NCBI RefSeq assembly: GCF_029633865.1
Contig: NC_079217.1
Location: 55,218,979-55,282,978 of the forward strand
Source of the DNA: Lampris incognitus
Taxonomy: Eukaryota > Chordata > Actinopteri > Lampriformes > Lampridae
DNA: 64,000 nt
Reading direction: 5' to 3'
The notes beneath the pieces were generated by a model that was not told the DNA's origin, did no database searches, and saw nothing but the letters and a program-made list of their open reading frames with translations. A program made the position numbers and the translations under genes. This document shows positions 24,394-59,739 of this stretch, piece after piece. Each line of letters opens with the position of its first letter. The first letter of the stretch is position 1.

Positions 24394-25649
24394 GTAAGAT
24401 TGAAAGGAACACGCTCATGTGGTCATTCATGCAGATGTGTACTAAGTCAAGTCAAATTAGGGCTGGGCGATATATCGAATATACTCGATGTATCGCGGCT
24501 TGTTCTCTGTGGGATGTAGAAAATTATTATATCGTGAATATTCGAGTATACGTTCAATTGTCACGCAGTCGCTTTTAGTCGCGGGCATTGAACTACAGGT
24601 TTTTCTCACTCTTTCGCATCTCTCAGCACAGAGAGATAAAACAAGCGCACCTAGTTACGTATGTCACATGCTGTCGTGCCTGCAACGTCCTACGCCCAGC
24701 AGCATGTAGCAGCAGCGCGTGCTATGACAAATGGAGGAGGGAGAATTAATTCCCAAGAAAAACAACGCAGGATCCATCGTCTGGCGGTGGTTTGGGTATA
24801 AGAGGGAGGACGTTGAACAAATAAACGTAATATGTAAATTATGCCACAAAAGCGTCGCCACAAAAGGTGGTAGTACAACGAATTTATTTCACCATTTGAG
24901 AACCCACCCGCTAGAAAACCAAGAGTGCTTGAAACTCCGCACGAGCGCATCTCCGGCCAGTGCCATATCGAAGAAAGTGCCGAAGCAACCAGCACTGACG
25001 CAGTTGAGCCTGGCGTCTTCTTTTTCCAGAACAACACCATACGACAAAAATAGTCAAAAACAGAAGGAGATAACGTCCGCAGTAACGTAAGTAATGAATG
25101 TTTAAAATCAGCACATTGTAGCGAATTCGGGGTAAAGCGCAACCACAGGAACTGCCGCGGCCCGGAGGCGAACCCGTACCGCCCGCACCGCGGGAGACAT
25201 CGCTAACCGCTCGACTAAAGGGTCAGACCCCCCCCCCCCCCCCCAGCTAGTGGCCAGCGTGTCTACTTATCCCTGCACGTTACAATATATTAATGCAGTA
25301 TGACCAAGAATGTTTTAATGTAGACACGTAGAATCATCATACTGGCATGATTGTGTGCATCAAAGTGTTAATTCAAGGCTAAGGCAAAATATCAAGATAT
25401 ATATCGTGTATCGTGACATGGCCTAAGAATATCGGGATATTAGTAAAAGGCCATATCGCCCAGCCCTAAGTCGAATCAATTTTATATGTATAGCCCAATA
25501 TCACAAATTTGCCTCAAAGGGGGCTTTACAGCAACACAGCATCCTGTCCTTAGACCCTCACATCGGATAAGGAACAACAAAACTCGGGGAGAGCAACAGA
25601 GGAGAAATCTCTCTCCCAAGACGGACAACATGCAATGGATGTTGCGTTT

Positions 25650-29935: not shown

Positions 29936-32900
29936 AGCAAAAGAGAATATTCCTTGATGGATATAACAATAAATGAAGAATGTCTTACTTTATGGCAAAA
30001 TTAAGTGAAGAAAAACTGTCAAGGAACTGTACTGAAGCATAACTTGAAACAAAACTCTAAACTCAGAGCTGAGCCATGATCAAGTTTTACCTCCTTTTTA
30101 CAGGGATGGACTACTTCTACATCAATGCTATCACTCTGGGGATAATGAGTGTAGCTTTTATTGTGTCCCTCTGGCTACCCCTGCCTCAGCGCGGCATTTT
30201 CTTCCAAGGTAAAATAGCTGGGTCCCAGCGGGAGGAAGAGGTAATGGAGGAGAAGAAGGGGGGTGATGAAGAGGCCGTGAAGAATGAGAAAGAGGTTGGC
30301 ACAGGGGCACAGAAGACAAAAAGGCAGGGCAGCGGTAATTGGTGCAGCAGGGATAACGTGGTCCATGCTAGCCAGCTGCTCTGGAGAAGCTTCAAGGAGT
30401 CCTACTCTTCCAGGCAATTTTTTTTCCTTAGCAATTAGTCACTCCACAATCCCCTGTCAGTAGACATCATATTTAATGAAAAGGATGTGTGCAGAGCAAT
30501 CACCTTTTGTTTTCTCCATGCCTATTTTCAGCTCTTCCTCACAAGGTGTTGTGATTAACAGTAATAATGTCTTTATACTTGAAGTACTAATTGTCATTAC
30601 AATCTTAAATGTGAATGATTATCTAGGCATTTGGTCTATTGGTCCTTGTGGTGGGCATTGGCCACAGCCGGATATGTGCAGGTCTTCAACTACATCCAGC
30701 TGATGTGGGACCACATTGAGCCTTCAGCAACATCATCCATCTACAATGGAGGGGTAGAGGCTGTCTGCACTCTTGTAGGTAGGACAGGTCACTCTAATTG
30801 TGTACTTAAGACAGCAGGAATGAGAGGGACAGAGAGAGACAGAAAAGGTGGCAAATACAAAGGAAAGAGACAGAGATGTACTACAGATTATTCCGGATAT
30901 GATCCCATATCCTTATACTTGAGATAAACCTTTTCAACTGAGCTGCAACATTATTTGGCTCATAAACAAGATGAAATATTTAGATAAGGTATGTGTTGAA
31001 ATTAATACTTAAGAATCCCAAATAACATCAGATCACATTGTTGTGAGTGAAAATGTTCCATGATAGAAAGCAGAAATTATGATCTCTGATAGAGGTCAAA
31101 GATCAGGATTGCCTTCTCGACACTTTTAGAACAGGTACCAGGATCCTTAGTGGGATGAAGATGCCAGACAGGCAATGTAGGAAGTGCACACATAAAAAAG
31201 TATGACACTAGTAAAAGCCACCATGTCCGATTACAGACAGACCTATAAAAGGTCTGCAATTGAGAACTCAGCATTCCCAATCTTGTAAATATAGGACAGC
31301 TGATTAAATGGATAATATGTATCGACTGAGAAAGGGGACTAATGGTTTCACAGTCCTGTTGGTTTGCTTCCAAACTGGCTCAGTATGAGAGAGAAATAAG
31401 TAATTGCTTCAATGAAGGAGATAGAGTTGTCGTGTAATGGTTCCTCTGATTATTGCTGATAGCTGGGTTCTAAGAGATAGATTTAAGTGGTTGACTGTGA
31501 TGGATAGGGGCTGGTGAGCAAGTGCATGGACAGACATACAGTTTCCCATAATCAAGTAGGCACCATGTCCTCCCCTCCGCCAGTGTCCAGGAAGAGGGAG
31601 CTTATTTCTAGAGTTAATGAATGAGTGCACAAATGCAAATTGTTTTGGAGAACACAGTGCTGATGCGCTGGCACACTCGGGAAGGGTCGTCTCCACGAAA
31701 CAGCAGGTTTATCACTCCATTTGTTCCTTCCCCGGGCCAGGTGCTGCAGCTGCCCTCTCTGTGGGTCATGTCAAGGTGATGTGGGACGTGTGGGGAGAGA
31801 TGGCTTTAGGCTTATTCTCAGCAGTGGGAACGGGAGCCGTGTTTCTCATGGGGCTCACCAACAGCATCTGGGCCTGTTATGCTGGTTATGTTGTTTTCAA
31901 AGCCTCCTACATGCTCCTCATCACTATTACGACGTAAGTTCCCAACAACACAAACAAGATATATTGCTGGCCTGTGTCAGTGATTCTGCACTGGTGGAGC
32001 AGGATCTTTTTAACATTTCTTTGTGGGTGGAGGGATGGTACAGTAACATTGCATCAAGCATGAAATAAAAATGGGACTTCGACAATTGATTTGTCTGCAT
32101 GGCTGTCCTCTGATAAAAGCTACAAACTGGTTTTAGACAGACTTTTTATGCACATAGATCTTGTTGAGGAAAATTTGACCTTCACTTAGTTTCAGGCATT
32201 GATCTGGAAAATTTTATATGGCATAAATGAAAGCTGAATGAATTCATTCACCAAAGAAAAACGATGGGAACAGGAGTGAGACAAGTCTAAACTACAAAGG
32301 TGCTACTACTACGACTACTACTTCTTTTGGCTGCTTCCGTTAGGGGTCGCCACAGTGGATCTTCCATTTCCATCTCTTCCTGCCCTCTGCATCTTCCTCT
32401 GTCACATCAGCCACCTGCATGTCCTCTCTCACCACATCCATAAACATCCTCTTTGGCCTTCCTCTTCTCCTCTTCCCTGGCAGCTCCATATTCAGCATCT
32501 TTCTCCCAGTATACCCAGCATCTCTCCTCCACACATGTCCAAGCCATCTCAATCTTGCCTCTCTTGCTTTGTCTCCAAACTGTCCAAGCTGAGCTGTCCC
32601 TCTAATACAGTAGTTTTCAGGATTTTTCTGCTCAAGGCACACCAAAGAACAAGCCACAATCTCAAGGCACACTAGTATTCATATCTGTGCAAAATAGCCT
32701 CTATAAACCGTTATCACTCTTATCACTCTGTAAATGTTTATTTTTATTTACTAATGCCAAATAGAAATTGACAAACAACTACATTACTCATTAAATATTT
32801 GTTAACAAAATAATTCAATAATTGATTTTAAACTTTGTAAAATTTCGTCAAAAAGAGCAGCAACACAACCATTTAAACCAGACAGGTCACACAATTAAAA

Positions 32901-35900
32901 CTGAAAAGAAGGAGACACAGAAGAGTGTGTGTGTGTGAGAGAGAGGGAGAGAGGAGGAGGAGGAGAGAGAGCAGCGTTCCTGGTTGAGTAAATTCATGTC
33001 AACAGCATTGATTTGAAAACATAACTGTAGTCTAAACTTGTAAAGGAAAAAGACGCACTGAGAATGAAAACGAATTTTCATGCAAAATGTGAATATAACC
33101 AGTGTCAACGCACTTGACATCGAGTTGAAAAGAAAACTTTTAGTCGGAAATTGTAAATGTAACTTAAATTTGCCGCATTAAAGCATTTGCTATCGTAAAT
33201 ATGTTTTTGGGGTTGTTTTTTTTTTTGCCTACCTCCAAACTAGTGAGACCCATGTGCCTATTGGTGCTCGCAGATCTTTTTAAACTGACGAGAGGGCCAC
33301 TAACAAGTCCTGTTCAACAGAGAGCCGTGACCTCCTGTTGTTCTTCATGTAAACCAGAGTAGAGAATGCCAACTCACACAGGTAGGCAGTGGGGAGAAGA
33401 AGAAGTTGCTCAATAGCTTTGGCTGGAGATTGGGTGCAAAAGCCAACCAAAACTGATCCAGTAGGAACTCACTAAATTTGAGCTTCAATGTGCGGTCCAT
33501 ACGGAGCTCTGCGCATTCCTCTCTCTCTCAAAATTAGCTTTTCTGTTGAGGATTCCTGATTGAATGGGTCTTGAATCCAGTCATAGTCCTCGATGTCGGC
33601 CACACCTGGAAAATAGCGCTCAAACCTCTCTTTTAATGTCTGAGGGTGTTCGGCAAATACAGCGCACTCCCTGGCTGCCTGTGGCGCGGCTGATGCCAGT
33701 GGGAATATGTCCCTGGAGCCTTGCTCCAAAGCCTCGTGCCACAGTGTAAACTTGCCCATAAACCCCTGAATCTTGTCTGTGGATGACAGAATGTTTTCAT
33801 TCCTGCCTTGAAGCTTGGCGTTTAACTCGTTAAGATGCCCAAATATGTCTGCAAGGTAAGCCAGCTTGGCGCACCACGTCTCATCTGCAAGCTTGTCCTT
33901 ATGTGTTTGTTCACTTGAAAACTCAAAAACCTCTTCTTGAAGCTCATAAAGATGGGACAGGACTTTCCCCCATGCAGCCAACACACCTCGGTGTGGAGGA
34001 TAAGGCTTTGATGATCAGCTCCCATCTCAGCGCACAGTTTGGAGAAGAGGCGAGACTTCAGGGGCCTTGATTTGATGTAATGTGCCATCTGTACAGCCTG
34101 ATCCAGTACCTCAGCCAACTCCGGGGTCATGGGTTTGGCAACTAATGCTTCTCGATGAAAAATACAGTGGTTTGTCACAATATTTGGGTTTTGTGCTTTC
34201 ACTTTGGCAATAAATCCTCTCACTCTCCCAGTCATGTATGCCACACCATCTGTGCAAAGACTGACGCACATATCCCAGGTCAGACTTTTCTCTTTTAAAG
34301 TTATGTTACCCTGAATATTTCTCCTCCCATTTTATGGCTTTCAGTTTCTTTGCAGAAGAGAAAAGTCTCTTTAATAGAGTCACCATCAACGTAGCTGACG
34401 TTTGCCAGAAGTTGGGCAGCCCCACTTATGTCAGTGGATTCGTCGATTTGTAGAGAAAATTTGCCGCTCATCTGCAGTTTCTCGGTCAATTGTTGCTCAG
34501 TTTCATCTGACATGTCGTCGATTCTTCTTTTGATTGTATTGTCGGACGCAGGCACGTCTGATACCGCATTTGCGGCATCTGGCTCTAGCATGACACCTGC
34601 AGTTTTTGTTTTTTGTTTTGCAAGCGGGGAGGATGAGTGTCTCAGCTACTGTGATGTTTCTCCTGCTTTGCAATAAGCGCCGCTAACATATAACTTGCCT
34701 CCAACGCCTTATCAGACACTTTCACACAATCCATCAAACGATCTTGCTGCTTCTGGTTCAGAACCCGTGCTCTTTTGAAGTATGCCAAGTGTCTATCAAT
34801 GTGTAAGGGATGTTTGGTTTCCAAGTCTCTTCAGCTTGCTTGGCACCAATGTTAGCATTAGCCAACTTCTCCCGGCAGATGACGCACTCGGGCTGAGGGC
34901 TGTTGACATCCCCGGTCCGGCTGAAGCCGTAACACATGTAGCTTTCGTGATACTGTCTACTGACAGTCTTTTCACAGTTGTTATCCTCCCTCACACTGGC
35001 TGTCAATCAGGGCCTTTGATGTGTCACACTCTAATAATTCCCACATCTACTGCGCGAACGGTGAAAACTGGGGTTCCCTTTGACAGAAGGTTTTTAAAGA
35101 AATTGTTTTTAGGCGGATAATTTGTCTCTGCCAGGGAAGAGGAAAAGAGGAAGGCCAAAGAGGAGGTTTATGGATGTGGTGAGAAAGGACATATAGGTGG
35201 CTGGTGTGACAGGAAGATGCAGAAGACAGGGAGAAATGGAAACGGATGATCCGCTGTAGCGACCCGTAACGGAAGCAGCCAAACGTAGTAGTAGAAGTAG
35301 TAGTACTACTACTACTACTTAGTAGTGGTAGATTGGGAAATGATTGTGTAAAAAAAATACTGACAGGAAATTAGAAATTAATTATTAACTTTTTAGTTGT
35401 ATATTGTAATAACAATGTGTGCTTTCACAAAATCCCACGGCACACCTGGACTTGCCTCACGGCCATGGATGTAATAAAGTAGAACTGGACACGGCGCCGC
35501 CGCTCAGCCTTGCAGCCAATTTGTTCCAGTGGTCACTCCCGGTGTTGCAGCGAAAAATCCCCTGCGGCCCAAAAGCATTTTCCCCATAGACCACCATCGT
35601 AAAAGAGACGCCTGTAAAACTGTTGACAGGACACCTGCAGCTATAATCATGGTCAATTATTACTCTTTGAATTGGATACTGTAGCGAATTCGGGGGACAA
35701 CGCAACCACAGGAACTGCCACGGCCGGGAAGCGAACCCGTGTCGCCCGCACCGCAGGAGGCATCGCTAACCGCTCGACTAAAGGGTCAGACTCGCGGGCC
35801 AGCGTATCTTCTTATCCATGCACGTTACATTACCCCCTCCTTCGGAAAGCGCGTCCCCGCGTTTAAGCATATCAGCTTCTTCACGCCTCAGGGCGCATAC

Positions 35901-38900
35901 GCTTCCGATGGCCTTACGGTCGCTCCATCCCACTTCTGACACCAATGTAGCGAATTCGGGGGACAACGCAACCACAGGAACTGCCGCGGCCGGGAAGCGA
36001 ACCCGTGTCGCCCGCACCGCAGGAGACATTGCTAACCGCTCGACTAAAGGGTCAGACCCGCCAGCCAGCGGCCAGCGTGTCTTCTTATCCATGCACATTA
36101 CAATACTTTTTAGCCATGGGGTTTTAATCTTTTAAAAAAAATTCCCAAAGCCCAGAAAAAGCACAGAATTTTTTTCCCCTGCATGACGGCACGGCTGTGT
36201 ACGAGCCGTTCTCATAGCCTAGAGGCATGACGGAATCCCACATATTCAGTGGGCCCCAGGTACCCGGAAGTAACCCGGAAGCCAGAAACTTTTTCGGCGT
36301 ATGTGCCAGGTGAGCAATTCTCATAGGAATGAACAGGCGCCATTTTTAGATCCGGTATCCAGTTCTACTGTAATGGGAACCTCTGTACTCGTTCACAAAC
36401 CTGTCTTCATTCGTCACTCGCAATGACAATCTTAGCATCTTTAACTCTGCCGCCTCCAGCTCCGCCTCCTTTCATTTCGTCAGTGCCACTGTCTCCAAAA
36501 CCATATAATGTAGCTGGTCTCACAAACATCTTGTAAACCCCACATCCAAGATGGCGGCGCGCTGGACTTGGCGGCTACTGCGGCTCCCTGTTCAGTGTTG
36601 TGTTTTCTTTGTTATTTATGTTAGTTTTAAGTTTATTTACAAGTGTAGGTCACGCGCTCTTCTACAGCCGTCAGGAACTTTTAAACCTCACAACAGGTTA
36701 CTCACTTCCCTCCTCCATCATGGACAATTTCCCCATCGATATTATCCGCTCACCGGTCTCGCAGTGGAAACGCTGGCCCCGTCGGCAACGTAAACAGAAG
36801 AGGGGGAAACGAGGCCGGCTACATGCTAAGCTAAGTAGCGCTCCCTTCAAAGTTTCCCTCCCCAGCATATTAATGGCCAATGTCTGATCGTTAGCTAACA
36901 AAATGGACGAGATAAGACTCAGGCTGTCCTCTCAGAAATGGCTGCAGAACTGCTGTCTGCTGATGTTTACGGAGACTTGGCTCAACAGCAACATAGCCGA
37001 CTCGGCAGTCGAGCTAGCGGGCCGCACAGCCTTCCGTGCCGACAGGACAACGGACTCCGGCAAAATCCGCGGAGGAGGTTTGAGTATTTATGTCAATAAC
37101 TCTTGGTGCAAAAATATTGTAACGTGCATGGATAAGAAGACACGCTGGCCGCTGGCTGGCGGGTCTGACCCTTTAGTCGAGCGGTTAGCGATGTCTCCTG
37201 CGGTGCGGGCGATATAGGTTCGCTTCACGGCCGTGGCAGTTCCTGTGGTTTGCGTTGTCCCCGGATTTCGCTACAATATAAAGATCGTTGAAAGGCATTG
37301 CTCTGCTGATCTCGAGCTCCTTATTGTAGCCCGTGGAATTAGATACCACACAGGACACAATTACTTCCGGGGTTCTTGTAGCTTTAATTTTATTGTTTGA
37401 ACCTTCGAATGCAGATCGTTTTACTGAGTGCATACATTCCTGTGTCTTTCGAGCAAACAGCTCATAAATGTTCACAGATGTGGCAAGTTTAACAGAAAAG
37501 ATTTTAAAAAGGGAAATAATAAATACAAAATACGGTGCAAAATACGGCAGTGGACTATGTACGTTAAACAGGGTTTAACAAAGACATGTGGAACTTCCTG
37601 AAGATCGCGCAACTTCTCACTCTGTCAGTTACCTTTAAACAGAATTAAAATGCATATAAACCTTTACATCCCAAATACAATGGCATGGTGTGGCTTTATT
37701 CACGCCAACATTACCTTGTCATGCCTGCAATGGCGAACAGCGGTCGACGGCTCGCGCCCAAAATCACCGAACATCAACTCCAGTAGCGTCTAAATCAAAC
37801 CATCTTGTCAAATTACCGACATACAATATTGGTTGGAATAATGTTACAGGTATATTTCACAAGATATTTACCCTTACTTACTACGGAGTCAGAGCACTGT
37901 CACACCGCAATCTTCAGGCGCTCCACACAAGAAAAAAAAGAAAGAATACCCAACATGCACTTGGATAACTTGCACGGAGTTACAATAAAAGTCCGCCACT
38001 GCCACTTACTGGTCAAAACATGCAATGACAAGCAAAACTATAAAAATACCCTCACAATCTGCCTCACAATTTAAATACATCAAATGACATTTTACATGGC
38101 TTGACAGTGTAACAATTACATATATTAACAGTTAAACTATACTAAATTTAAGTGGAAAATCATTTAACATATTTAACAGATTTACCACCCGGCTACATTA
38201 TGATTCAGTGCAGGCCTTTTTAACTGCCCAGGGAGCTAATGGCCATTACCATCACTGCTGTATACATCCCCCCACATGCTAATGCTAAGGTAGGACTTAA
38301 GCAGCTACAATGTGCCATCAGCAGACAACAGACCAAGCACCCGGACAATGCCTTTATCATAGGTGGTGATTTTAATCAGGCTAACCTCAGAACTGTATTG
38401 CCCAAATTCCATCAGCATGTCTCCTGCCCCACTAGGGGACAAAACAGCCTGGACTATCTCTATACAAACATTAAGGACTCATACAAAGCTACTCCCTGTC
38501 CCCACCTGGGGCATTCTGACCATCTGCCTGTTCCTGGTCCCAGCCTACAAACCCTTAATAAAATGGGTCAAGCCAGCAGTAAAGACAATCACTGTCTGGC
38601 CAGAAGGAGCAGTCTCTGAACTCCAGGACTGTTGTGACAACACAGACTGGAGTATTTTTGCACATTCAGCTACCCATGGCTCCCATATAGACAGTAATGA
38701 ATAGACATCTGCCATACTAGCCTACATTAACTTTTGCACTGAGAGTGTCACAACAAAAAAATCAATCTGCTCCTTTCCAAACCAGAAACCCTGGATGACC
38801 AGTGAGGTCCGGCAGCTGCTGAAAGGCCGGGATGCAGCGTTCAAGTCAGATAACTGCGAGGCCTACAGCGCAGCCAGATCCAACCTCAAAAAGGCATTAG

Positions 38901-46867: not shown

Positions 46868-47694
46868 GTGGATGACCTTTCATCCTTAGTCCCTGTAGCG
46901 CTGGTCTCCAGCAGCTCCTTAATATATGTTCTGTGTATGGTGTGGAGCATGATATCAAATGCAATGCTAGTAAGTGTGTTGTCATGATCTGCAGAACCAA
47001 AAAGTCAATTATCCAAAATTTCCTGATTTTAAATTGTCTGATAATAATCTTGCAGTATAAGGTTAAATATCTTGGACCTTATATTACTGAACAAATGACA
47101 GACGATGATCATATTTATAGGCAATACCGCATAATGTATGTACAAGCAAACACTCTCTCACACAAGTTTGGTATATGTTCAGTTAGTGTGAAGATGTCTC
47201 TGTTCAGAACATACTTTATACTGTACCACTTTATACTGCTCACCTGTGGTCAAACTACAACAAAACAAGCTTACAGAGACTTCGAGTAGCTTATAATGAT
47301 GATATGAGAATACTCCTAAAAAGACCTAGATGGTGTAGTGCAAGTGAAATGTTTGTGGCTGCAGGAGACAATACCTTCCAGGCTGCTCTAAGAAATCTCA
47401 TGTATAGATTTATTTGCCGGCCCAATGAATCTGATAATGAAATCATTATGGGTTTAACTAATATAAGATTATATAAGATTCAGTGCCACATGCTACCAAT
47501 CCCAGCAGTGGGACCACTGGTATAGCTGCCTTCTTGTAAGACAGTGATTTGTTCCTTTTATGTGTTTACTCTATGTATTGTGTAGGGTTTCTCTTTCAAC
47601 AATGGCTCTATCTTTTATAGCTTTTTTTTTTAACCTTGTCTTTGTCTGTTATGGACCCTGAGCCTGCAATAAAGTATTGAACTGAATTGAATTT

Positions 47695-49690
47695 CTAGTT
47701 GGACATCATCAATCACTACTTTTACTTTGGTGTTTATTTTATAATTTCCAAACAGCATAAAGTTTGTTTTGTCCAGATTTAAGGATAATTTGTTTTTGTC
47801 AAACCACCGTTTTAATTTTTCCATTTCTATTGTGGTCACCTCCAAAAGCTGCTGTAAATTCTCACCAGAACAAAATATATTCATGTCACCTGCAAATAAA
47901 ACAAATTTCTATATTTTTGATATCTTGGATATATCATTTAAGTACAGAATGAACAGTTTGGACCTAAAACCGACCCCTGGGGTACACCACAAGTAATATC
48001 CATGCATGAAGATTTATGTTCACCTATCTTTACAAACTGCTGCCTGTTACTTAAATAGCTTCTTAGCCAGTTCTGCACCACCCATTTGATACCATATCTT
48101 TCCAATTTATCTATTAAACTGTTGTGGTCAATAGTGCCAAAAGCTTTTTAAGGTCTATAAATATTCCCACAGCAAACCTTTTTTGGTCTATGCAATTAGT
48201 TATTTCTGCAATTAATTCAATGAGCGCCAGAGATGTCAATCTGTTTTGTCAAAACCTGTACTGGCTATCGGTCAACAGATTGTGCTTCACAATGAATTTG
48301 TCTAGTCTAGCAGCAAATAGTTTCCCCAATATTTTAGAGAATTGTGACAATAATGAAATCGGTCTGTAGTTTTTATATTGGTGTCGTTCTCTGGTTATGA
48401 GTTTTGCTATTTTCATTTTGCTTGGAACTTTACCAGATTGAAAGGACATGTTATAGATGTGGGTTAGTGGTTTTGCAATACCTTTGATTACTTTCTGAAC
48501 TATGTCATATCAATATCATTCCAGTCAGTAGATTTTTTTTTCTCACATTTGTTTACAATGTCCATGATTTCCTTCTCTTCCATCGTTCTAAGAAAAAAAT
48601 GGAACTTGGATTTCTGTTCACATAATCACTATCATTCCCCTCTGTGATTGTTTGTGTGTCATTGATTTTTCCTGCCAGTTTTAGGCCCACATTTACAAAG
48701 AATCTGTTGAAGCCATTAACCACATCTTCCATTTTATTTCTAGTCTTGTCATTATCTGTAAAGTATTGAGGGCAGCTTGGGCTTTTAGAACAGTTTCTAA
48801 TACTATTCAACACATTCCATATACCTTTGGTGTTGTTTTTATTGGTCTCTAACTGTTTATTATAGTATTCCCTCTTGCATATCCTCATACTGTTTGTTAG
48901 CTTGTTTTTATATATTTTTTGTATTTCAGATCTGCTTCAATGGTTCTGTGCTTAATTAATTCTTTATAGAGCTTTTTTTTTATGACAAGCAATACGTAGT
49001 CCCTTTGTGATCCATGGACTATCTTCATATTTCTTTTTACTGTTGAATTGTTCTATTGGTCAATTTTGTCAATTAAGGATTGAAATATGTTTAGGAATGA
49101 AATGTAAGCTTTATCAATGTCTATTTCTTTGTATACTATATTCCAGTTATGTGTTAGTAATTAATTTTTGAAAGCATTCATGGGTTCCTCTGTTCTTACT
49201 CATATATTTGATGTTGTTGGGAACTTCGTTCTCCCTAAAATTACAGTCATAGACTAAAAACTGGTAGATGGTCATTGATGTCATTTATCAAAAGCCTGCT
49301 CTCAGTGTTGCCTTCTATAATGTCTGTGAATATATTGTCTATTAAGGTGGTACAGTGTGGTGTGATTCTGCTAGGTCCGGTGATTTTAGGATATAAACCA
49401 AAACTATAATGAACTCTTGTCTTGTTGTGCTTATTTGGATTTAACGGGTCGATAGTGAAATCCCTACATATGAACATATTCTTTTGTGTTGATTTTGAAT
49501 GAGTGTCTTTTATGCAGTCCTTAAATAATTCAGTATTTGATCCCAGTAATCTGTACATACAATTTATGATTACATTCTTCTTTTTTCCATACAGATTTCA
49601 ATTATGATACATTCCAGCATGTCAGCAACAGCTGTTGACATAACTTCTACCACCTTGTAATTGAGGCTGTTGCTCACATACAAAGCAACC
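47695..49690 (-). repeat. Decayed LINE, minus strand
   Basis: Minus-strand order: a GVALYVSNSLNYKVVEVMST block (about 49,690-49,630), endonuclease end (49,558-49,247: TRVHYSFGLYPKITGPSRIT), a linker (48,888-48,553: CKREYYNKQLETNKNNTKGI, GFNRFFVNVGLKLAGKI), RT entry (48,449-48,249: YKNYRPISLLSQFSKILGKL) and a later RT part (47,884-47,700: KLKRWFDKNKLSLNLDKTNF). A typical non-LTR RT layout of the CR1/jockey group. Frames are heavily broken. Confidence 0.75.
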
Positions 49691-49694
49691 CCCC

Positions 49695-50906
49695 CCCCAA
49701 CAATTCGTATCCAGCTAACTCAAAGTCAACACCTGAGATGGATGATGGGACAAATGGTGTGTTCTCACCCACTTTGTCACAGAATACAATGGCCTTGTCC
49801 TCAGAGGAAGCAGGATCGTCGTGCCAAGGTCAGTGAGAGGTGAGACCCTTCAGAAAATTCACGAAGGGCACCAGGGCCTAGTTAAATGTAGGGAGAGAAC
49901 GGGTGCATCTGTGTGGTGGTCTGGACTCTATGGAAATAAACAAGCTCGTGATGTCATGCCAGGTGTGCCGTGAACTGAGAAGAGCACAACAAAAGGAACC
50001 TCTCATCTCTACACCACTTCTGGAGCAACCTTGGAAGAGAATTGCAATGGACCTCTGCGAGCACAAACACCACAGCTACCTGGTAATCTCAGATTATTAC
50101 TCCAGGTTTATAGAGATACTGCACTTGCCCTCAACAACGAGTGCACAAGTTATCCAAAACCTGAAAACAGTCTTCGCCAGGTTTGGCATTCCAGATGAGG
50201 TGGTGGGCGATAATTGACCCCAGTTTTCAAGCACAGAGTTCCAGGAGCTTGCGAGGCAGCTCAGTTTCAAGCACTGCACATCCAGCCCTCGCCACCCACA
50301 GGGCATTCGGCATGCAGAGAGAGCCGTACAGATGGCAAAGAAAATTCTCACACAGGAAGATCCTGTGATGGCTCTAATGAGCTATAGGTCCACTCCCTGC
50401 TCCTCCACAGACTACAGCCCAGTTGAACTGTTGATTGGGGAAAAAAATCAGAACCACACTCCCTGCTTTGGAGACAATCTCCTACCAAATTGGCCCAGCA
50501 GAACAGCTGTGAAAGGAAAAGATGGGAGAGAAAAGGCTAAACAGGCTCACTACTTCAGTCGCTGTCATGGAGCCAGGCCCTTACCTGCCCTGTGACCAGG
50601 AGATGTTGTATTCTCCAACTTGGACCATGAAAAGTCATGGTCTCTGCCAGCGGTGATCTCAAGTGAGAGCACCACTCTGAGATCCTTCGCCATCAGGACG
50701 CAGCAAGAAGCAGAGCTGAAGCGGAACCGCCGTCACCTCCAACCAGGGCCGGCTCCCCAGCTCATCCCAACAGCATCCGGTGAGAGCACAGGGACAGACA
50801 CCCACTCTGACGGAACCACCATGTTAGAGACTGTTCTTGTCAGTCAGAGTGTGGCTACATCCACACCCCCTCTACCCAGTCAGACTGTGTGGACGGGTTT
50901 GCAAGT
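49695..50906 (+). repeat. Ty3/gypsy-type relic, integrase region
   Basis: Fossil LTR-retrotransposon piece on the plus strand. It shows the zinc-binding CQVCRELRRAQQ block, the integrase core beginning MDLCEHKHHSYLVISDYYSR, and an SPRHPQG-type motif, ending in a C-terminal tail near 50,900. Broken; gag and RT are absent here. Confidence 0.82.
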
Positions 50907-52245
50907 GTAACGGATGTGGATAGGGCAAATAAGGAAGCAACTCTCAACGACTGTTTTTCAGCATTTATTGGCTCTGCAGAAGACAAACACAACACATTTT
51001 TGATATCTCTTCTGCTTGTCTTCATCAAAGCAAAATGGCACTATGAGGAGGACGGGTGCTACGGAAATTCAGTGGTACAGAAGGATTGATGTGAAGTAAC
51101 ATAATTTCTGCAGGGAATATTAATAACTGTAAATTGAAATAATAACAAATACTTAACAGAATTATTAAATGATAAATAAATTCAAAAGTACTAATTGGAA
51201 ATAAAGAAATTAATCAAGAGCATTTTTTTTATTATTTGTTTCACCCACCCCCACTGAATTTTATCGAATTTGAGCACCAGCTACACAGTACGGACTATAA
51301 AAAACACTTCAAATCACAAAGGGTCATAATAAAGAAAGCCAACATCAATTGTATCCCATTAAGGATGCAGTGGGATGAAGGATGAAGTGGTATGAGAGCA
51401 GCTCTTATCCCTCAACTGGCATCCAACAACTGGCAACAGGGTGCCTTGTACACCCCACAAGACCCTAACACATTGCAGTGTAGGCCCAAGACAGTAAAGA
51501 AAAAGAAAACCATGGAACATTATACCAATACAAAAACTTTCAGTCATTTAAAGACATAGGCTATCTGATTACGAATTTAGTCAGCAAAAGCCTGGAACAC
51601 AGATTTGCAAACAGCCTTAACATTGAACTTGTCTGGAACAACATCCTGCTTGGACATGGTTTGTATGAGCCTGTTTGCCTTTTCTTTTCTCTCCCTTTAA
51701 CAGATCAAAGAGTGGCTTGGCGGTGGCAGAGTATCCAAGCACGAAGTGTTGATAGTAATTTATCATCCGTTAGGAAGGATCTTATGGGGTCACACCATCA
51801 GGCTCCATGAGGTCAGCGCTTGTCATGTTTGTAATGTTCTCAACCTTACTGGGATCTGTCGAAACACTATTCTCATCTATTATGTGGCTGTAAGTGACCA
51901 AGCTGGTAGACAAGAGGAATCACAGGTCTTTTTTTTTTTCAAAAAATAAGCTTTTATTTACCCAAAACCATTCCCCTGTGATAACAAAAAGCTCTGGACC
52001 CATAAAAGAGGTCAACTAAACAAAACTTACCTCAAATCATGCCAAACAAAGAAACTGAACATAACAAACTGAACATAACACCAAACTAAACACAAGGGGG
52101 AACTTATATACTGGCTGGTCAGTGAAACGGGGTAACACACAAACAACAATCTACCAACTAAACTACAAATAACAAAAATCAAGACAATTCTTCAATACAT
52201 TAACCCATTTAAATAATAACCAAAGCCAAAGAACCAAAACCTAAC
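50907..52245. other. Non-coding stretch between gypsy relics
   Basis: TGTAACGGATGTGG near 50,908 may start an LTR of the integrase-bearing relic. From 51,100 to 52,245 it is AT-rich with a T run near 51,931-51,942 and no gene recognised. Confidence 0.4.
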
Positions 52246-52439
52246 ATATTCCTAAGAAACAAACAAAATATCTAAATTAAGAATAACATTCCCCCCTATG
52301 ACATGGCAGGTAGTTGGTAGAGCCCAATTGGCCACCTTGTATTTAACAGCTCTGCTCTGTGGAGTGCATCTTTTGCTCAGGCCTGACAAGATGTCCTCCA
52401 GCAGTGGCAACCAGCAGCGGCATCCCGAGCACTGGTAAC

Positions 52440-55380
52440 TCAGCAACCGAAAATTAAAACAAAATGAACTACAAATGTGTGGCTACGAGTGCGACCATCC
52501 CAGTGGCCAAGAAACTTGATAGACCTCCTGAGGAAGTAGCACTTTTTGGGCGCCAACTTCAAGTTGTGGCCACACAGCCTGTCAAACACCATCTCCAGGT
52601 GCTGTAAGGCAGTCTCTTCATCAGGCGCAAACACCAACAGATCATCCAAGTAGCACAGCAGACCCAGATACTTTTGGTCCCCAAATATACTGGTCATCAT
52701 AAGCATAAAGCTCCCAGGGCTGTTGCAGAGGCCTTGGGGTAGACCGTTATACTCATACAGGCCCATGGGAGTGGTAAAGGCAGAGTACTTCCTGTCGTCC
52801 TCATGGAGTGGCATGTTATAATAACCGGAGGTCAAATCCATCGTGCAGTTGCTTCCCAGCGCTGCCAAGCAGTCTGTCTGGTGGGGAGGGGGATGAGCAT
52901 CCTTCAGGGTCCTTTTGTTCAACCAGTGAAAGTCTGTACAGATGCGGAGAGCTCCGTTTTTTTTTCTTCCCACACAAGCACCAATGGAGATGCATATTCA
53001 CTTGTCAGTTTTCAAATGCTCTCCCTTTCCTCCATCACATTCAGCAGTTGGAGCAGTTTTTGGTACTGGCCAGGGGGCACTCTCCTGTATGGGAGCCTGA
53101 ATGGTCTGTTGTCCGACAGGTGTATGCGGTGTACAAAGCCCTTTGCCTCCCCACAGTCAAGATAGTGGCATGAAAAGACAGCCGCAACACAAGGACAGTC
53201 AATCTCCTCTTACAGTTCTCTGACACTTCACATGACTCAATGTCAACAGTACTGAGCCAAACGGACATGAGCTGATCTTTGACGGAGTTTACATCAGCAA
53301 CAGATGGCACAGCAGATTGGGTGTAACTGGCCAGGGGAACATCAGGGCCTCAGGAACATCCATGTCTTCAAGCGCTACATGGGAGTAGACATCAGCCAGC
53401 GTTGCATTGCACCTCAACAGCACAGGCCTTTCAGATGTATTAAGCGCTTCAGTGGGACCCACCTGTCTCCCCGCATTGATGTCACAAGCTTTATGACCAA
53501 AACACCTCTGGGAGCTGAGCAGGACGATGTTGGCTCTGTCATGACTGTGCTGCCTGGGGAAATAGCAGTGTTTTTGGGTAGTTTACCCCAGATGAGATAC
53601 TCATGACCAGGCTTGAGACAGGTAGCTGAATTACACCTGACTGTATCAACCTTATCAGGGACATCTTCACCTCTCCAGGGGTTCAGACCAGAGAGCATGG
53701 ACAGGAAGCATTCAGTGTCTGGGTCATTGGTTGAACAGAGGCCTGACAATGTCTTCCAATAGGACTCACAAAGCTTGGACTGACAAAGGATGTGTTTTAT
53801 AACATTGGTCCTCAATATCAACTCATCATGCTGTCCTGGAACAACGGGTGTGGGAACCAGCATCTTGCCACCATACACCTCCATCTCCACATTAAAAGCA
53901 CATTTGGGCTTTACATGTAGCCCACCACATCCAACTAGGATCAGATTTACATCTATTCATTTCTGATCAGTTATCACTCCAGCCTCTCTCAATTTCATTT
54001 CAGCTGTTTCACTGATACTGCATGCCATTGAACCACTGTCCAACATGCCACCCATTGTCACTGTCCCACCCATCACCACAGGTGTGAAGAAAAAGACTGT
54101 CACTGCTGCCAACTCTGTGAATATTCTGATAAACAACTTTAAAGTGAGTACATGAGTCTTTCACAGATGTGTAAACCGATTCAGCATCAGACATATCAAC
54201 ATTTAGGGAGTTTGTGGTGCGAACTGTACTGCTTCCCTCTGAATATAGGTCAGCTAGTTTCCCTCAGGCTGGGGCTGGGTGGAGTTGTTTGCACGGCAAC
54301 TTTGTCTGGTGTGGCCAGGGACGAGGCAAGCAAAACACCGTCTCTGACATGCAGTGTGACATGGTGGTGTGGCTTGAATCATTTCACACTTTACAAGCTG
54401 CCTCTCTGGGACGTCTTTTGTGGGGGGCACGCTGAATCCTCCCACCTCGACTTGAATGGGTAGTATTACGCTGTTGCATTTTCTCCATCATCTCTTAAAA
54501 CATGTTAACCATACGGGTGAGAAGTCTTTCTTCTGACAGTTGGAAATTTTGTGCTACAACTGGTAGAGAGGCATGACTTGCAGCACGGTGACACACCTTG
54601 AATTGGGACAAATGCTGGAGAGGGGCAAGGAGGATGACACACATGACGTTGAGCTTGGAGGGAAAGAGGTGAGGGACTGGGAGTGTGGCACGGCTCAGAC
54701 TCTGCTAGGCTTGTTGATGGTGGATTGGTCTGCTCAGGAGTGATGGTGGTGATGTAACTCTTTAACTATACACTGGCTCTGCCATTAGTCCTCAACTCTC
54801 TCTGATAATCAGCAATCCTCAGCTGAACATCACGTGAGGTCCACTCATGAATTGGCTTACACTTCAGGGTGCATGATAGCTCTGGGTCAGGGCAGTGTTT
54901 GACAAACATGAGAGCCCCTTCTTTGTGCATGTCCTCTGTCCGCTTACCGTGTCTGTGCAGGCCCTCAAGAGCTAAGACTGCTGCTTTATTCAATCTTATC
55001 CAGTAATCAACTGGGTTCTCCCTGTGTTTGGGCAGAGTGGCATAAAAGTCTGCATGGGGAGACATGACGGAGCTTCACTGAAATAGTGGAGGAGCACATT
55101 GTATATCAGTTCAGGTTTATGTTTAACGTCAAGTGCAGGATCACTGCGTAAGGCCATTTTCACCACCTCTGGCCTTGCCCATTAAATGACTCATAATGTC
55201 TTCTGCTTGTTCATACACAGGGATCGCTTGCTTTCTGAGGTAAGTTTTGATCATTTCAAGCCAGTCTTGGGCCGAGTTGTCACCTCTGAATGTCTGGAGT
55301 ACTTTATCAGACTTAACTGTTACAGTTTCACCCTCACAACCCCTGCAACCTACCTCTTCCGTTCCCTCTGGACCTCCACG
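52440..55380 (-). repeat. Ty3/gypsy-type relic, gag to RT
   Basis: Fossil on the minus strand. A gag-like part (about 55,380-54,760), a CCHC knuckle (CFACLVPGHTRQSC, about 54,320), a protease-like zone, then RT (about 52,973-52,500) with RICTDFHWLNKRTLKDAHPP, GYYNMPLHEDDRKYSAFTT and the catalytic LLCYLDDLLVFAPD. Broken in several places. A separate gag-side piece appears at about 56,330-56,100, on the far side of an LTR-like insertion. Confidence 0.85.
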
Positions 55381-55399
55381 ACGCTCGGCTTCACCTGAG

Positions 55400-56066
55400 T
55401 ATCCACTCCTCACCACCAGAGTTGGGGAGCGTTCACGTTCCCCATCACCGGACTCTGATCCTGAGGTCCCCAGCGCCTCCCAACGGGCACGGCATGCCCT
55501 ACGGCGCCACTGATGCCATCTGCTGGCAGACTGGCAGCACGGCTCTGCTTTTCCCCGGTCACTCATTCCCTCAACTGTACCCCATCTACAATCATCTCAG
55601 CTGTTCCCCATCTGCAATCACTTCTACCCCTACAAGAACCTGGCCTTCTTTCAAACTCATTGCCAGATCTTCCCATAGGATATCTCTGACCTGTTGCGCA
55701 GAGCCGGCTCACCCACCTCCTCGGACTACCACTTAGACTGTGAGCTCGGACTACTCATCGATTCCCCTTTGCCCTCGGACTTGATACTTTGGCTGGTACA
55801 CGCACACTTACACAGCACCCAACGCCCCATTCACATTTTACACACACTTAGGATAATTTACACTAACACATAGCTAGACACATTACCGCCTGTCACTACA
55901 CATAGCGTATTCACACACCCCACTAACAAAACTGCCTGAGCACCATACACATCCTGCATTTCTCTCTCCATGATTTTTCCCCCTTTGTTAATTTTCATTA
56001 AACTTTACTAAGAGTCCTCAGCCTCCCGTGTGGTGATCTGGGTCCTCCTGCACAACCCGTAACACT
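55400..56066 (+). repeat. LTR-like insertion in the gypsy relic
   Basis: A C-rich plus-strand segment containing CATCTGCTGGCAGACTGGCA, a TTCATTAAACTTTACTAAGA block and an end near CCCGTAACA. It separates the two gag-side pieces of the minus-strand gypsy relic. It looks like a fossil solo LTR, but the left border is uncertain. Confidence 0.4.
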
Positions 56067-56099
56067 TAACGTGGACAGACACTTGTGGAACGTCATGTC

Positions 56100-56329
56100 T
56101 GTTAACATCTCAGTGTGTGTTTTAGGGTTGTGGCAGTAGTATGGCTGTCACTATTTATATTTACAACACCAGATGACATTAACTTTGCTACAATGAATTC
56201 ACCAATTTGGGCGCCTAACTTCCCTACCAAGTCTGTAAAATGGTGAATGGCATCGACATCACTACCAGGAGTAGAAGAGTGGGGACTCTCTCTCATGAGC
56301 TGATTAACAGGAGTAGTCTGAGCTCTCAC
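56100..56329 (-). repeat. Gag-side fragment of the gypsy relic (tentative)
   Basis: A short minus-strand open stretch with no clear domain. Placed with the gypsy relic only by position and strand. Confidence 0.35.
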
Positions 56330-56527
56330 TTAGCTCTGTATCTGCACAGTTATCGTTCATGAACCTTGAATGTCCCACATCCCTACTGTTGGCAATATGA
56401 TGGAGCCAAACACCCCTAGCTTTTGGCAAAATGTGAGTAGTAAATTCATTCGTTTCCATTTTAGCATTAGCTTTAAATCATTAAACATACTTGCACTATA
56501 GGAGGTCTTGCTGGTCGGTGCACTTAC

Positions 56528-56697
56528 TGCCAGGGAAGAGGAAAATCGGAAGGCCAACGAGGAGTTTTACGGATGTGATGAGGGAAGACATGCTGGTGTG
56601 ACAGAGGAAGGTGCAGAAGACAGGAAGAAATGAAAATAGATGATCCGCTGTGGCGACCCCCAACGGGAGCAGCCGGTAGTTGTAGTGGTAGTATTAC
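56528..56697 (+). repeat. RTE LINE 3' end fragment
   Basis: Contains the same LPGKRK-to-REDM region and GATCCGCTGTGGCGACCCC end as the other RTE tails, followed by a GTAGTTGTAGTGGTAGTA tail. Confidence 0.8.
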
Positions 56698-56825
56698 AGT
56701 GAGCTCAAGCTACTGAGAAACTGTTAAAATGTGTAGAATTTGGCACAATCTTTTGAGTTATGTTATTGCGTGGCTCTGTGGAATATGTAGGATATGACTT
56801 GAGGCAGACACATTAATACACTTAT

Positions 56826-58606
56826 TAGTGTGGTGGATCTGGACAGGAATCATAAGGCTACCTTTTACTGCCAGTGTCCAACTCCTGGGCTACACAGTGG
56901 GATCTATGCTGGGCCATATACTGGTCAGTCTTAATCTCATGTCCTACCACTACATCCTGGTATTGACCCTGGTCCTCATCTCCATCGCTCTCTTCACATC
57001 TTACCTCCTGCCAATGCCCAGCAAAGCATGTTTTTCCATTGCAGATGAAGAGACGAGGCACCAGAGGACACAGGAAAGTATACTGATGGGGGCTTGTATG
57101 GAAAAGACAAATACGAGAGCAAAGAGAAAGCCCTGGTGAAGGCAGGGAAGAAAGAACAGGTCCCAAGATTGAGGATGCTGAGGAGGCTGGACGTACAGAG
57201 GGACTTGTCCAGGTTCTCCTCCAGCTGTGGAGGGACTTCCTCCAGTGTTACTCTTCCCCGCAGCTGCTATACTGGTCAGTTTGGTGGGCACTGGCCACCT
57301 GTGGCTACAACCAGACTGCCAACTACGTACAGCTCAGTCACAAGGAAACACTGAAAAGGCTGGAAAAATTGACTCAAACATGTATGATTTAACTTTCATA
57401 AACTTAATTTGTGCAGGTGTGTCTGTATGTTGTGAGAATCTGGGATAGGATTATTCAAGAGAAAATTGCATCTAAAAATTCAAGTTGGGTCTCATTGATC
57501 ATGAGATGGTTTATTGTCTAGCTAGTGAGGCAAGAGGGGTGCTCCCAGTTTTAGGTAATGTACTGTCCCCCCAAATGCAGAGGATAAGGTGTGAAAATCA
57601 GGACAAAAAAAACCAAGAGCTTCAATAATACATAAATGATGCATCTAAAGTACATAAACGATCCCTGAAACCCACCCTGTAGGTACTGTGGGAGGATGTG
57701 CAGCCTTCCCAGAATTACAATGGAGGGGTGGAGGCTGTTTCAAACCTGTTCAGTAAGCAGCACTGAATGAAAACATTCCTAGCAGAAAGCCAAACAAGTC
57801 GGATGAATATCCATATCATTACACCAATTCCTGACAGTTTAAATGAAAACACAATGCAAGTCAAACTACAACTGTCTCTCTTACAGGTGCAGCCACAGCC
57901 TACAGTGTAGGCTTCACTCAGGTGAACTGGGCTCATTGGGGTGAGTTAGCCCTGGGTGGCCTCTCTGTCCTGGGGGCTGCAGCACTCTTTGCAATGACCT
58001 TCGCAGGCAATATCTGGGTCTGCTACACTGGCTACATCGTTTTCAAGTGCCTATACATGCCATCAATTACCATATCCATGTACGGGTTTGTTTATGATAC
58101 AAAGTTTATGAATGGAAAAACACTGAAGCCCAAATTCAATATTCAGTTTCTAGCTTAAGTCTGTAGGCCAATTACTGATCAAATGTGGGTTGTGTTAATT
58201 CGGTGAGATACTTAAGTATTTGTTCTGAATATTTCTCAGGTTCCAAGTGCAGCTGATCTGTCACTAGAAAGATTTGCACTCATCTTTGGAGCAAACAACT
58301 TTGCAGCTTCAGCTCTACAGACCATTATCACCTCCATAGTGGTCGACAGTGGAGGGCTTGGTCTGCACATCGTCCAGCAGGTAAGTCACCTGTTAAAGGA
58401 AGAGTCCCTTATTGTCTACTGCATGCCTAGCTGTAGCCACTTTACAACACAACTCAAGTCCTACTCTTTTGCAGTTTACCATATATTCCAGCTACTACTC
58501 AGTCACTGCCATTATATTCTGTCTGCAGGGAATATTCACCATTTGCAGAGGAAAGAAAACCCAGTTGGAGTCAACGCTTAAGAAAAAGTGTTCCCCAAGA
58601 CCCTGA
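56826..58606 (+). pseudogene. SLC19A2/A3-like thiamine transporter pseudogene (tandem copy)
   Basis: Homology starts abruptly within the fifth-span region (SVVDLDRNHKATFYCQ), so the first 130 or so codons are missing. Segments: 56,826-57,326 (LLGYTVGSMLGHILVSL; loop; [35 protein letters not shown]); 57,683-57,752 ([18 protein letters not shown]); 57,887-58,079 (193 nt, equal to the intact gene; NWAHWGELALGGLSVL, NIWVCYTGYIVFKCLYM); 58,240-58,380 (FALIFGANNFAASALQTI); 58,475-58,606 (FTIYSSYYSVTAIIFCL, stop). Lesions: frame changes near 56,870 and in the loop, and a 1-nt deletion in the fourth segment (141 against 142 nt; GTG-CA-GCT). Introns differ from the upstream gene. Most likely a dead duplicate. 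Confidence 0.87.
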
Positions 58607-59682: not shown

Positions 59683-59739
59683 CTATAAGAAGGGGTTTGT
59701 TGAGTTTCCTGTGGGATACTGTGCAGATGGAGCTCCGGC
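59683..59739 (-). CDS. agfg1: AGFG1 last coding exon
   Basis: 57 nt including the stop TAG; acceptor CCCTTCTAG. Ends in NPFL, the EH-domain-binding terminus. Confidence 0.88.
   Translation of the reverse strand, partial: AGAPSAQYPTGNSTNPFL

What the first reader, a model, noticed from the sequence alone, without database searches (positions are those of the whole stretch)
35680..36102. Miniature LTR retrotransposon whose LTRs carry a tRNA-like, pol III-promoter-like segment
Seen: two related LTRs of 150 and 157 bp, a 116-bp interior, 4-bp ATAC duplications, a primer site TGGTGTCAGAAGTGGGAT and a purine tract. Within each LTR is a tRNA-like stretch: an A-box-like TAGTCGAGCGGTTAG, a TGTC/GACA pairing around a CTGCGGTG loop, and a B-box-like GGTTCGCTTCC with a CGGG/CCCG T stem. 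Known: plant Cassandra TRIMs carry 5S rRNA sequence in their LTRs, and tRNA-derived promoters drive SINEs. Inference: this fish family may use pol III promoters within an LTR, an analogue of Cassandra built on a tRNA. At least three more LTRs of the family are known only as solo copies or parts here, so it is a real repeat family.
Basis: partly seen in the sequence, partly recalled or inferred. Interest (0 to 1): 0.8.

Follow-up and report, generated by a model that had tools for sequence, protein, structure and literature searches.

The report
Tiny fish retrotransposon with tRNA-like LTRs
This is a real, very abundant miniature jumping element in a fish genome whose end repeats carry a tRNA-derived stretch; the same kind of element (Helenus) was described in 2024, so it is a new copy-rich member of a known group rather than a new kind.

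Summary
[quoted passage not shown] It is a family: the host genome (1.48 Gb) has 4,526 LTR-primer-site junctions and 19,339 LTR cores at up to 3 mismatches, with zero control matches for each. The tRNA-like segment is significant by linear alignment but is not a tRNA by covariance model or ARAGORN. Box A fits the recalled consensus in 107 of 122 LTRs; box B departs by at least one base in all 122.

I file this as a new member; identity with its fish family LTR-11_DR could not be tested.

Added here: integration targets are RTAY in 38 of 40 perfect duplications, fitting a Gypsy-type integrase; diverged sister subfamilies; single insertions with two LTRs of different subfamilies, best explained by collapse of tandem arrays; and no pol III terminator in the window element. 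Pol III use remains inference.

The parts
35676..35679 (.). target-site duplication ATAC (left)
   Evidence: same type RTAY in 38 of 40 perfect duplications of the family
35680..35829 (-). 3' LTR, 150 bp
35770..35780 (-). box A-like TAGTCGAGCGG in the 3' LTR (0 mismatches to TRGYNNARNNG, consensus recalled)
35727..35737 (-). box B-like GGTTCGCTTCC in the 3' LTR (1 mismatch to GWTCRANNC, consensus recalled)
35833..35843 (-). polypurine tract GAAGGAGGGGG just before the 3' LTR
   Evidence: a purine tract ends the interior in the 22 units listed
35830..35945 (-). interior, 116 bp, non-coding
   Evidence: 39 further places at 97-98% identity over 113 nt (list cut by the tool)
35927..35944 (-). primer-binding site TGGTGTCAGAAGTGGGAT, 18 of 18 complementary to the 3' end (with CCA) of tRNA-Leu-CAA (tRNA sequence recalled)
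   Evidence: exact in 61 of 69 interiors
35946..36102 (-). 5' LTR, 157 bp
35993..36003 (-). box B-like GGTTCGCTTCC in the 5' LTR
36036..36046 (-). box A-like TAGTCGAGCGG in the 5' LTR
36103..36106 (.). target-site duplication ATAC (right)
37118..37275 (+). solo LTR of the same family, ATAT duplications
25117..25284 (-). solo LTR of the same family, imperfect ACAT/ATAT duplications, expanded C/G run

Best explanation
A non-autonomous TRIM of the Helenus group. Shown: LTRs of about 150-157 bp with tRNA-derived boxes A and B, a tRNA-Leu primer site, a purine tract, 4-bp RTAY duplications, thousands of copies, solo LTRs and tandem arrays. Inferred mechanism: RNA is made from the tRNA-like promoter in the 5' LTR (pol III, by analogy), starting near the GACCC upstream of box A. 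It runs through the interior and the 3' LTR and stops in the flank, because the body has no T4 terminator. A Gypsy-type element supplies Gag, RT and integrase in trans; cellular tRNA-Leu primes minus strand at the PBS; strand transfer uses the LTR stretch repeated in the RNA; the purine tract primes plus strand; integrase inserts at palindromic RTAY sites. The tRNA-like part is a promoter relic, not a tRNA and not the primer. The confidence given is for Helenus membership and the LTR-type cycle; for pol III transcription itself I would say 0.6.
For: Anatomy. Family in the host: 40 LTR and 41 interior matches listed, both lists cut by the tool; 4,526 LTR-PBS junctions and 19,339 LTR cores at up to 3 mismatches, zero control matches for each. 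36 LTR-interior-LTR units with full-length LTRs and one such LTR-I-LTR-I-LTR array among 118 chains. TSDs: 40 of 55 tested sites are perfect and 38 of those 40 are RTAY, against 1.4% RTAY tetramers in the window, with an A/T preference 3 bp outside on both sides. tRNA resemblance: the four window LTRs score above 300, 300, 292 and 296 of 300 dinucleotide shuffles against 19 recalled tRNAs, on the sense strand; 119 of 122 LTR copies score above the 99th percentile of 400 random window stretches, which are poorer in G+C (10 recalled tRNAs). Box A exact 107 of 122. Between the window LTR and five copies of a diverged subfamily, identity is high just before box A (0.85), at box A (0.76), box B (0.89), T arm (0.87) and LTR 3' end (0.88), and 0.39-0.63 elsewhere. 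Helenus definition and fish members: PMC10886601. Palindromic ATAT targets of Gypsy-type elements: PMC3276498 passages.
Against: No tRNA covariance hit at any threshold tried, no ARAGORN hit, no cloverleaf fold (z 0.21, 0.39, -0.45). Box B never matches the full consensus (0 of 122; the A is C in 116, T in 5, gap in 1). Within the window subfamily the tRNA-like part is no more conserved (0.946) than the 3' side of the LTR (0.959). Lack of TTTT is not significant: 757 of 2000 shuffles and 162 of 1272 equally long window stretches also lack it. TRGCY, which Kojima reports for most box A, is TAGTC here. Some single insertions carry LTRs of two subfamilies, which plain reverse transcription does not give; an extra step (array collapse or gene conversion) is needed. 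No autonomous partner was identified.
Confidence: 0.9

Rival explanations
1. A TRIM whose LTR has a tRNA-derived stretch that is only a fossil; the element is transcribed by pol II like an ordinary LTR retrotransposon.
For: Box B defect in all 122 LTRs and no stronger conservation of the tRNA-like part within the subfamily; no tRNA fold.
Against: No TATA box (TATAWA) and no AATAAA/ATTAAA in the window element; between subfamilies the stretch before box A, box A and box B / T arm are among the few conserved parts (five copies).
Confidence: 0.35
2. Two independent solo LTRs of a repeat family flanking unrelated DNA.
For: The two LTRs differ by 5% and by a 7-bp indel, and no second interior lies in the window.
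Against: Identical ATAC on the two outer sides; primer site and purine tract sit exactly at the LTR borders; 39 other places with the same interior were listed, and each of the 30 interior loci scanned (L009-L038, L009 being the window element) has a family LTR on at least one side.
Confidence: 0.01
3. A tRNA-derived SINE, tandemly duplicated.
For: tRNA-like head, short length, many copies.
Against: TG...CA LTR ends, tRNA-Leu primer site, purine tract, 4-bp RTAY duplications, solo LTRs.
Confidence: 0.02
4. The two LTRs of one insertion are systematically different because transposition follows a route that keeps LTR differences (not the usual LTR copying).
For: 157/150-bp pairs with perfect duplications are common among loci found with the 150-bp query. 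Of 53 interiors with both LTRs classed by box A motif, 8 have LTRs of two subfamilies (6 with the foreign type at the 5' side, 2 at the 3' side); 43 are window type on both sides and 2 foreign type on both. L011, L018, L024 and L078 are such mixed units with perfect duplications. In L007, L011 and L024 the 5' LTR changes from window type to foreign type between the U3 marker and the GGGTC(T/G)GACCC marker.
Against: The length asymmetry follows the query, which was the 150-type 3' LTR shifted 4 nt into the interior; among interior-chosen loci it is mixed (157/150 in L025 and L070, 155/150 in L018, 150/157 in L073, five 157/157). Mixed subfamilies fit collapse of arrays of the form A-I-C-I-A by LTR-LTR recombination, which keeps the outer duplications; L053 is such an array. 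Gene conversion would also do. 6 versus 2 is not a significant bias.
Confidence: 0.06

Closest known systems
Helenus (Kojima 2024), in particular fish families related to LTR-11_DR
   Same: TRIM with tRNA-derived boxes A and B in the LTRs, PBS to a tRNA 3' end (tRNA-Leu is one of the three used in vertebrates), purine tract, 4-bp duplications in animals, thousands of copies and tandem arrays (LTR-11_DR), functional tRNA unlikely
   Different: No sequence comparison with LTR-11_DR was possible. Box A reads TAGTC rather than TRGCY. RTAY target preference, a missing terminator and mixed LTR pairs are not mentioned in the parts of the paper I read. Host species and order unknown; it could be one of the hosts already listed.
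Cassandra (plants)
   Same: TRIM with an internal pol III-type promoter in the LTR (works-like comparison)
   Different: Cassandra carries 5S rRNA sequence with conserved pol III terminators; here the segment is tRNA-like and the window element has no T4
Ajax (nemerteans)
   Same: TRIM with a small-RNA-derived LTR segment and tRNA-Leu primer
   Different: 5S rRNA-derived, 5-bp duplications
tRNA-derived SINEs
   Same: tRNA-like internal promoter, short, non-coding
   Different: no LTRs, mobilised by non-LTR retrotransposons through target-primed reverse transcription
Gypsy-type LTR retrotransposons with ATAT targets (e.g. Drosophila 297, Transpac, 412)
   Same: 4-bp duplications at palindromic A/T-rich targets (PMC3276498 passages)
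   Different: autonomous, coding; named here only as the type of integrase likely used

Membership tests
Helenus | TRIM: short (311-1263 bp reported), two LTRs, no coding capacity | tested here: met
   423 bp, two LTRs; minus-strand ORF has no Pfam family, the plus-strand ORF only a sub-cut-off ZT_dimer match judged to be chance
Helenus | tRNA-derived sequence in the LTRs | tested here: met
[quoted passage not shown]
   GGTTC and CGG present; TAGTC in place of TRGCY
Helenus | PBS and PPT at the interior ends; vertebrate PBS to tRNA-His, -Leu or -Lys | tested here: met
   18 of 18 to tRNA-Leu-CAA 3' end (recalled), purine tract present
Helenus | 4-bp target-site duplications in animals | tested here: met
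   window ATAC/ATAC; 40 of 55 sites perfect
Helenus | functional tRNA unlikely (only a few families could encode one) | tested here: met
   no Rfam tRNA, no ARAGORN hit
Helenus | mobilised by Gypsy (animals) | tested here: inconclusive
   RTAY palindromic targets fit; other elements with the same PBS exist (L085, L089), but no partner was proved
LTR-11_DR-related fish Helenus | sequence homology to LTR-11_DR | not testable with these tools
Cassandra | 5S rRNA sequence in the LTRs | tested here: not met
   no 5S match in the element at E<=10 and none in the window at gathering score
tRNA-derived SINE | no LTRs, PBS or PPT; mobilised by target-primed reverse transcription | tested here: not met
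   LTRs, PBS, PPT, 4-bp RTAY duplications
TRIMp3 (pol III-transcribed TRIM) | transcription by RNA polymerase III | not testable with these tools
   no transcript or occupancy data on hand

The most novel reading that the evidence does not exclude
A terminator-less pol III TRIM: transcription starts at box A/B in the 5' LTR and reads through the whole element and 3' LTR into flanking DNA to the first T-run (61 nt downstream in the window copy). Minus-strand transfer would then land on an internal R in the 3' LTR, unlike Cassandra, which ends inside its LTR. Read-through RNAs and co-packaged RNAs of sister subfamilies would also explain the head-to-tail arrays A-I-C-I-A (L053) and, after their collapse, single insertions with two different LTRs. 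With more LTR cores than the 5,575 LTRs given for zebrafish (counted differently), this would be a large mobile source of pol III promoters placed at RTAY sites.
Probability: 0.35. Interest if true: 0.55.

Novelty: new member of a known kind. Interest (0 to 1): 0.3.

Why it matters
It is a blind rediscovery of Helenus in an assembly not identified here, with more LTR cores (19,339 at up to 3 mismatches) than the 5,575 LTRs reported for zebrafish by other criteria. It adds testable points: a strong RTAY target preference, which ties the element to a Gypsy-type integrase; the absence of an internal pol III terminator; and mixed-subfamily LTR pairs, which bear on how arrays form and warn against dating such elements by LTR divergence. 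So copy-rich a family, with diverged sister subfamilies in one genome, is a good system for asking whether TRIMp3 elements really are pol III transcribed.

Tried and rejected
Chance repeat or two independent solo LTRs: rejected by the shared interior family and duplications. Hidden tRNA gene: rejected. 5S or other Rfam family: none at gathering score in the window. The single-stranded fold is no better than shuffles. Absence of TTTT as evidence for pol III: not significant. 5'/3' LTR length asymmetry: traced to the query used; mixed LTR subfamilies are real but put down to array collapse (see rivals). Bacterial and viral contig collections: a 23-nt LTR core gave 0 matches in genome contigs and 0 in viral contigs. 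The 17-nt PBS as a text string in papers: 0. Papers on Helenus in that library: only PMC10886601 holds 'Helenus' with 'TRIM' and 'retrotransposon'; two searches listed no other paper on it; (20 of 28 listed) found it. Long direct repeats around the RT and integrase fragments at 47000-60000: none of 60 nt or more. Host identity: one CFTR exon scores 290.9 bits to 5uar/5w81 and 212 to 6d3r (species recalled as zebrafish and chicken); I read it as a teleost not close to zebrafish, order undetermined.
Full report
Observation. The window stretch 35680-36102 is a complete miniature LTR retrotransposon on the minus strand: 5' LTR 36102-35946 (157 bp), interior 35945-35830 (116 bp), 3' LTR 35829-35680 (150 bp), ATAC on both outer sides. 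The interior begins with TTGGTGTCAGAAGTGGGAT, of which 18 nt are complementary, 18 of 18, to the 3' end plus CCA of a recalled human tRNA-Leu-CAA gene; the next best of 19 recalled tRNAs, Leu-CAG, matches 9. It ends with a purine tract. The two LTRs differ at 7 of 150 sites (K2P 0.049) plus a 7-bp difference at a GCTGGC repeat. Two further LTRs lie in the window: 37118-37275 with ATAT duplications and 25117-25284 with ACAT/ATAT.

A family in the host genome. The window lies in a 1.48-Gb assembly. A search with window 35684-35833 (the 3' LTR shifted by 4 nt into the interior) listed 40 places at 92-100% identity, with 2,400 first-look candidates of which 40 were scored. The interior listed 41 matches, 40 of them nearly full length at 97-100% identity, the window's own included. 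Whole-genome pattern counts with up to 3 mismatches gave 4,526 LTR-PBS junctions (31-nt pattern) and 19,339 LTR cores (25-nt pattern), with zero matches to the reversed control in both. These counts may include diverged copies, array members and solo LTRs. Because the tool lists only the best matches, the loci studied favour well-preserved copies.

Anatomy across copies. From 76 loci plus the window (L001 and L009 dropped as duplicates of the window; L030 and L031 overlap) 118 chains were found: 36 LTR-I-LTR with full-length LTRs, 22 solo LTRs, one full LTR-I-LTR-I-LTR array, and 59 partial or irregular chains. Of the 59 regular chains, 4 were dropped for inexact ends; of the other 55, 40 had identical 4-bp duplications and 15 did not. 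The 40 are ATAT 19, GTAT 11, ATAC 7, GTAC 1, TTAT 1, GTTA 1, so 38 of 40 are RTAY, against 916 of 63,997 tetramers in the window. A/T is also favoured 3 bp outside on each side. Palindromic ATAT or TATA targets that extend beyond the duplication are described for Gypsy-type elements of Drosophila (PMC3276498, passages seen). The exact 18-nt PBS is in 61 of 69 interiors.

The tRNA-like segment. Local alignment to recalled tRNA genes scored 51, 44, 32 and 35 for the four window LTRs. Shuffles reached the observed score in 0, 0, 8 and 4 of 300, and antisense scores were 20-27. Of 122 distinct LTRs, 119 exceed the 99th percentile of 400 random window stretches (which are poorer in G+C); the best of 10 recalled tRNAs is Gly-GCC in 85 and Asp-GTC in 27. 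Box A (TRGYNNARNNG, recalled) is exact in 107 of 122, with one mismatch in 13 and two in 2. Box B (GWTCRANNC, recalled) has one mismatch in 116 and two in 6, never none; the consensus A is C in 116, T in 5 and a gap in 1. No covariance or ARAGORN tRNA was found, and the fold is not a cloverleaf. It is therefore a tRNA-derived linear promoter-like segment, not a tRNA.

Is it constrained? Within the subfamily, no: mean column conservation is 0.946 in the tRNA-like part against 0.959 on the 3' side and 0.903 on the 5' side, the latter lowered by a variable spacer (0.786). Between subfamilies the picture differs. A pattern search for the PBS followed by a base other than G gave 675 places. Of the 12 loci fetched, the first in contig order, five (L083, L086, L087, L090, L091) carry an LTR about 68% identical overall to the window LTR, with the same PBS. 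Identity between the window LTR and these five is 0.85 just before box A, 0.76 at box A, 0.89 at box B, 0.87 over the T arm and 0.88 at the LTR 3' end, and 0.39-0.63 elsewhere. In L086 box B is the full consensus GGTTCGATTCC. This supports retention of the boxes, on five copies. The L090 LTR itself has 40 other listed places at 89% identity or more.

Mixed LTR pairs. Most LTR pairs in the 22 units differ at 1-11 sites, but L007, L011, L018 and L024 differ at 20-26. In these four the 5' LTR belongs to another type whose tRNA-like part and 3' side resemble the diverged subfamily, while the 3' LTR is of the window type. Typing by box A motif, 53 of 67 interiors could be classed on both sides: 43 window type on both, 6 with the foreign type at the 5' side only (L007, L011, L014, L018, L024, L046), 2 at the 3' side only (L053, L078), 2 foreign on both. 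L011, L018, L024 and L078 have perfect duplications. In L007, L011 and L024 the change lies between a U3 marker and GGGTC(T/G)GACCC, just upstream of box A. Ordinary reverse transcription makes both LTRs alike, so something else acted. L053 is an array A-I-C-I-A; LTR-LTR recombination inside such an array would leave a single interior, mixed LTRs and intact outer duplications. I take that as most likely, with gene conversion as the alternative; neither is shown. The window element has the window type at both ends.

Mechanism. Shown: LTR-type ends, PBS, PPT, 4-bp RTAY duplications, copy number, arrays. Inferred: pol III transcription from boxes A and B, trans-mobilisation by a Gypsy-type element, tRNA-Leu priming. 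The window element has no TTTT in sense. TTTT occurs in 4 of 122 LTRs and 0 of 69 interiors, but 757 of 2000 shuffles of the window element and 162 of 1272 window stretches of its length also lack it, so this is no evidence of selection. It does mean that a pol III transcript would end in the flank, at a T-run 61 nt downstream in the window copy. There is no TATAWA, AATAAA or ATTAAA in the element. Other elements in the genome share the PBS. L089 has an open frame with a CCHC zinc knuckle 0.8 kb downstream; an open frame in L085 looks Gag-like to me but has no Pfam match. Neither was shown to be the partner.

Comparison. Kojima 2024 (PMC10886601; text parts 1-4 of 6, the figure and table section, and passages read) describes Helenus: TRIMs with tRNA-derived LTR sequence in fungi, animals and plants, with 4-bp duplications in animals, vertebrate primers tRNA-His, -Leu or -Lys, families in coelacanth and sturgeon/paddlefish, fish families related to LTR-11_DR in Ostariophysi, 5,575 LTRs and 2,618 interiors of LTR-11_DR in zebrafish, and tandem arrays. 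The paper names Helenus as the twin of Cassandra and says pol III use is unproven. The present element meets the defining features tested, except that TRGCY is TAGTC and the Gypsy link is inconclusive. Searches for other papers found no second description. Whether it belongs to the LTR-11_DR lineage is untested. The host appears to be a teleost not close to zebrafish from one CFTR exon; its order is unknown.

Verdict. A sound observation and largely correct reading, but of a known kind: a new, very copy-rich member of Helenus. Interest 0.3.

Noticed in passing
L083, L086, L087, L090, L091 (PBS near locus position 1501-1520): A diverged Helenus-like subfamily in the same genome, LTR typically starting TGTAACGATCACGGATGAATAGG, same PBS and similar LTR end; the L090 LTR has 40 other listed places at 89% identity or more.
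   Followed up: partly
L007, L011, L014, L018, L024, L046, L078; array L053: Single insertions whose two LTRs belong to different subfamilies, and one array with a foreign middle LTR; such elements cannot be dated by LTR divergence.
   Followed up: partly
L083 1835-2913: Repeated copies of LTR positions 36-120, mostly about 142 bp apart, i.e. an LTR-derived tandem array, possibly a young satellite.
   Followed up: no
L006, L020, L030/L031; also G000 C1:47889695-47890259: Head-to-tail arrays with a period of about 267-280 bp, as reported for LTR-11_DR.
   Followed up: partly
window 31560-31937 and 56798-57139, both +: Two exon-like pieces matching reduced folate carrier / SLC19 (Pfam PF01770), 25 kb apart in transposon-rich DNA.
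   Followed up: no
window 52440-52997 (-) and 49882-50217 (+): Fragments of a reverse transcriptase and of an integrase-like domain, the latter below Pfam cut-off.
   Followed up: no
window 24728-25090 (+): Open frame with a BED zinc finger (Pfam PF02892) ending just beside the solo LTR at 25117.
   Followed up: no
window 25228-25252: The solo LTR at 25117-25284 has an expanded C run in the spacer before box A; the same spacer varies in length across the family.
   Followed up: partly
L080, L081, L085, L089: Other elements that share little more than the tRNA-Leu primer site with the TRIM; L089 has a zinc-knuckle open frame downstream. Candidate autonomous partners or their remains.
   Followed up: partly
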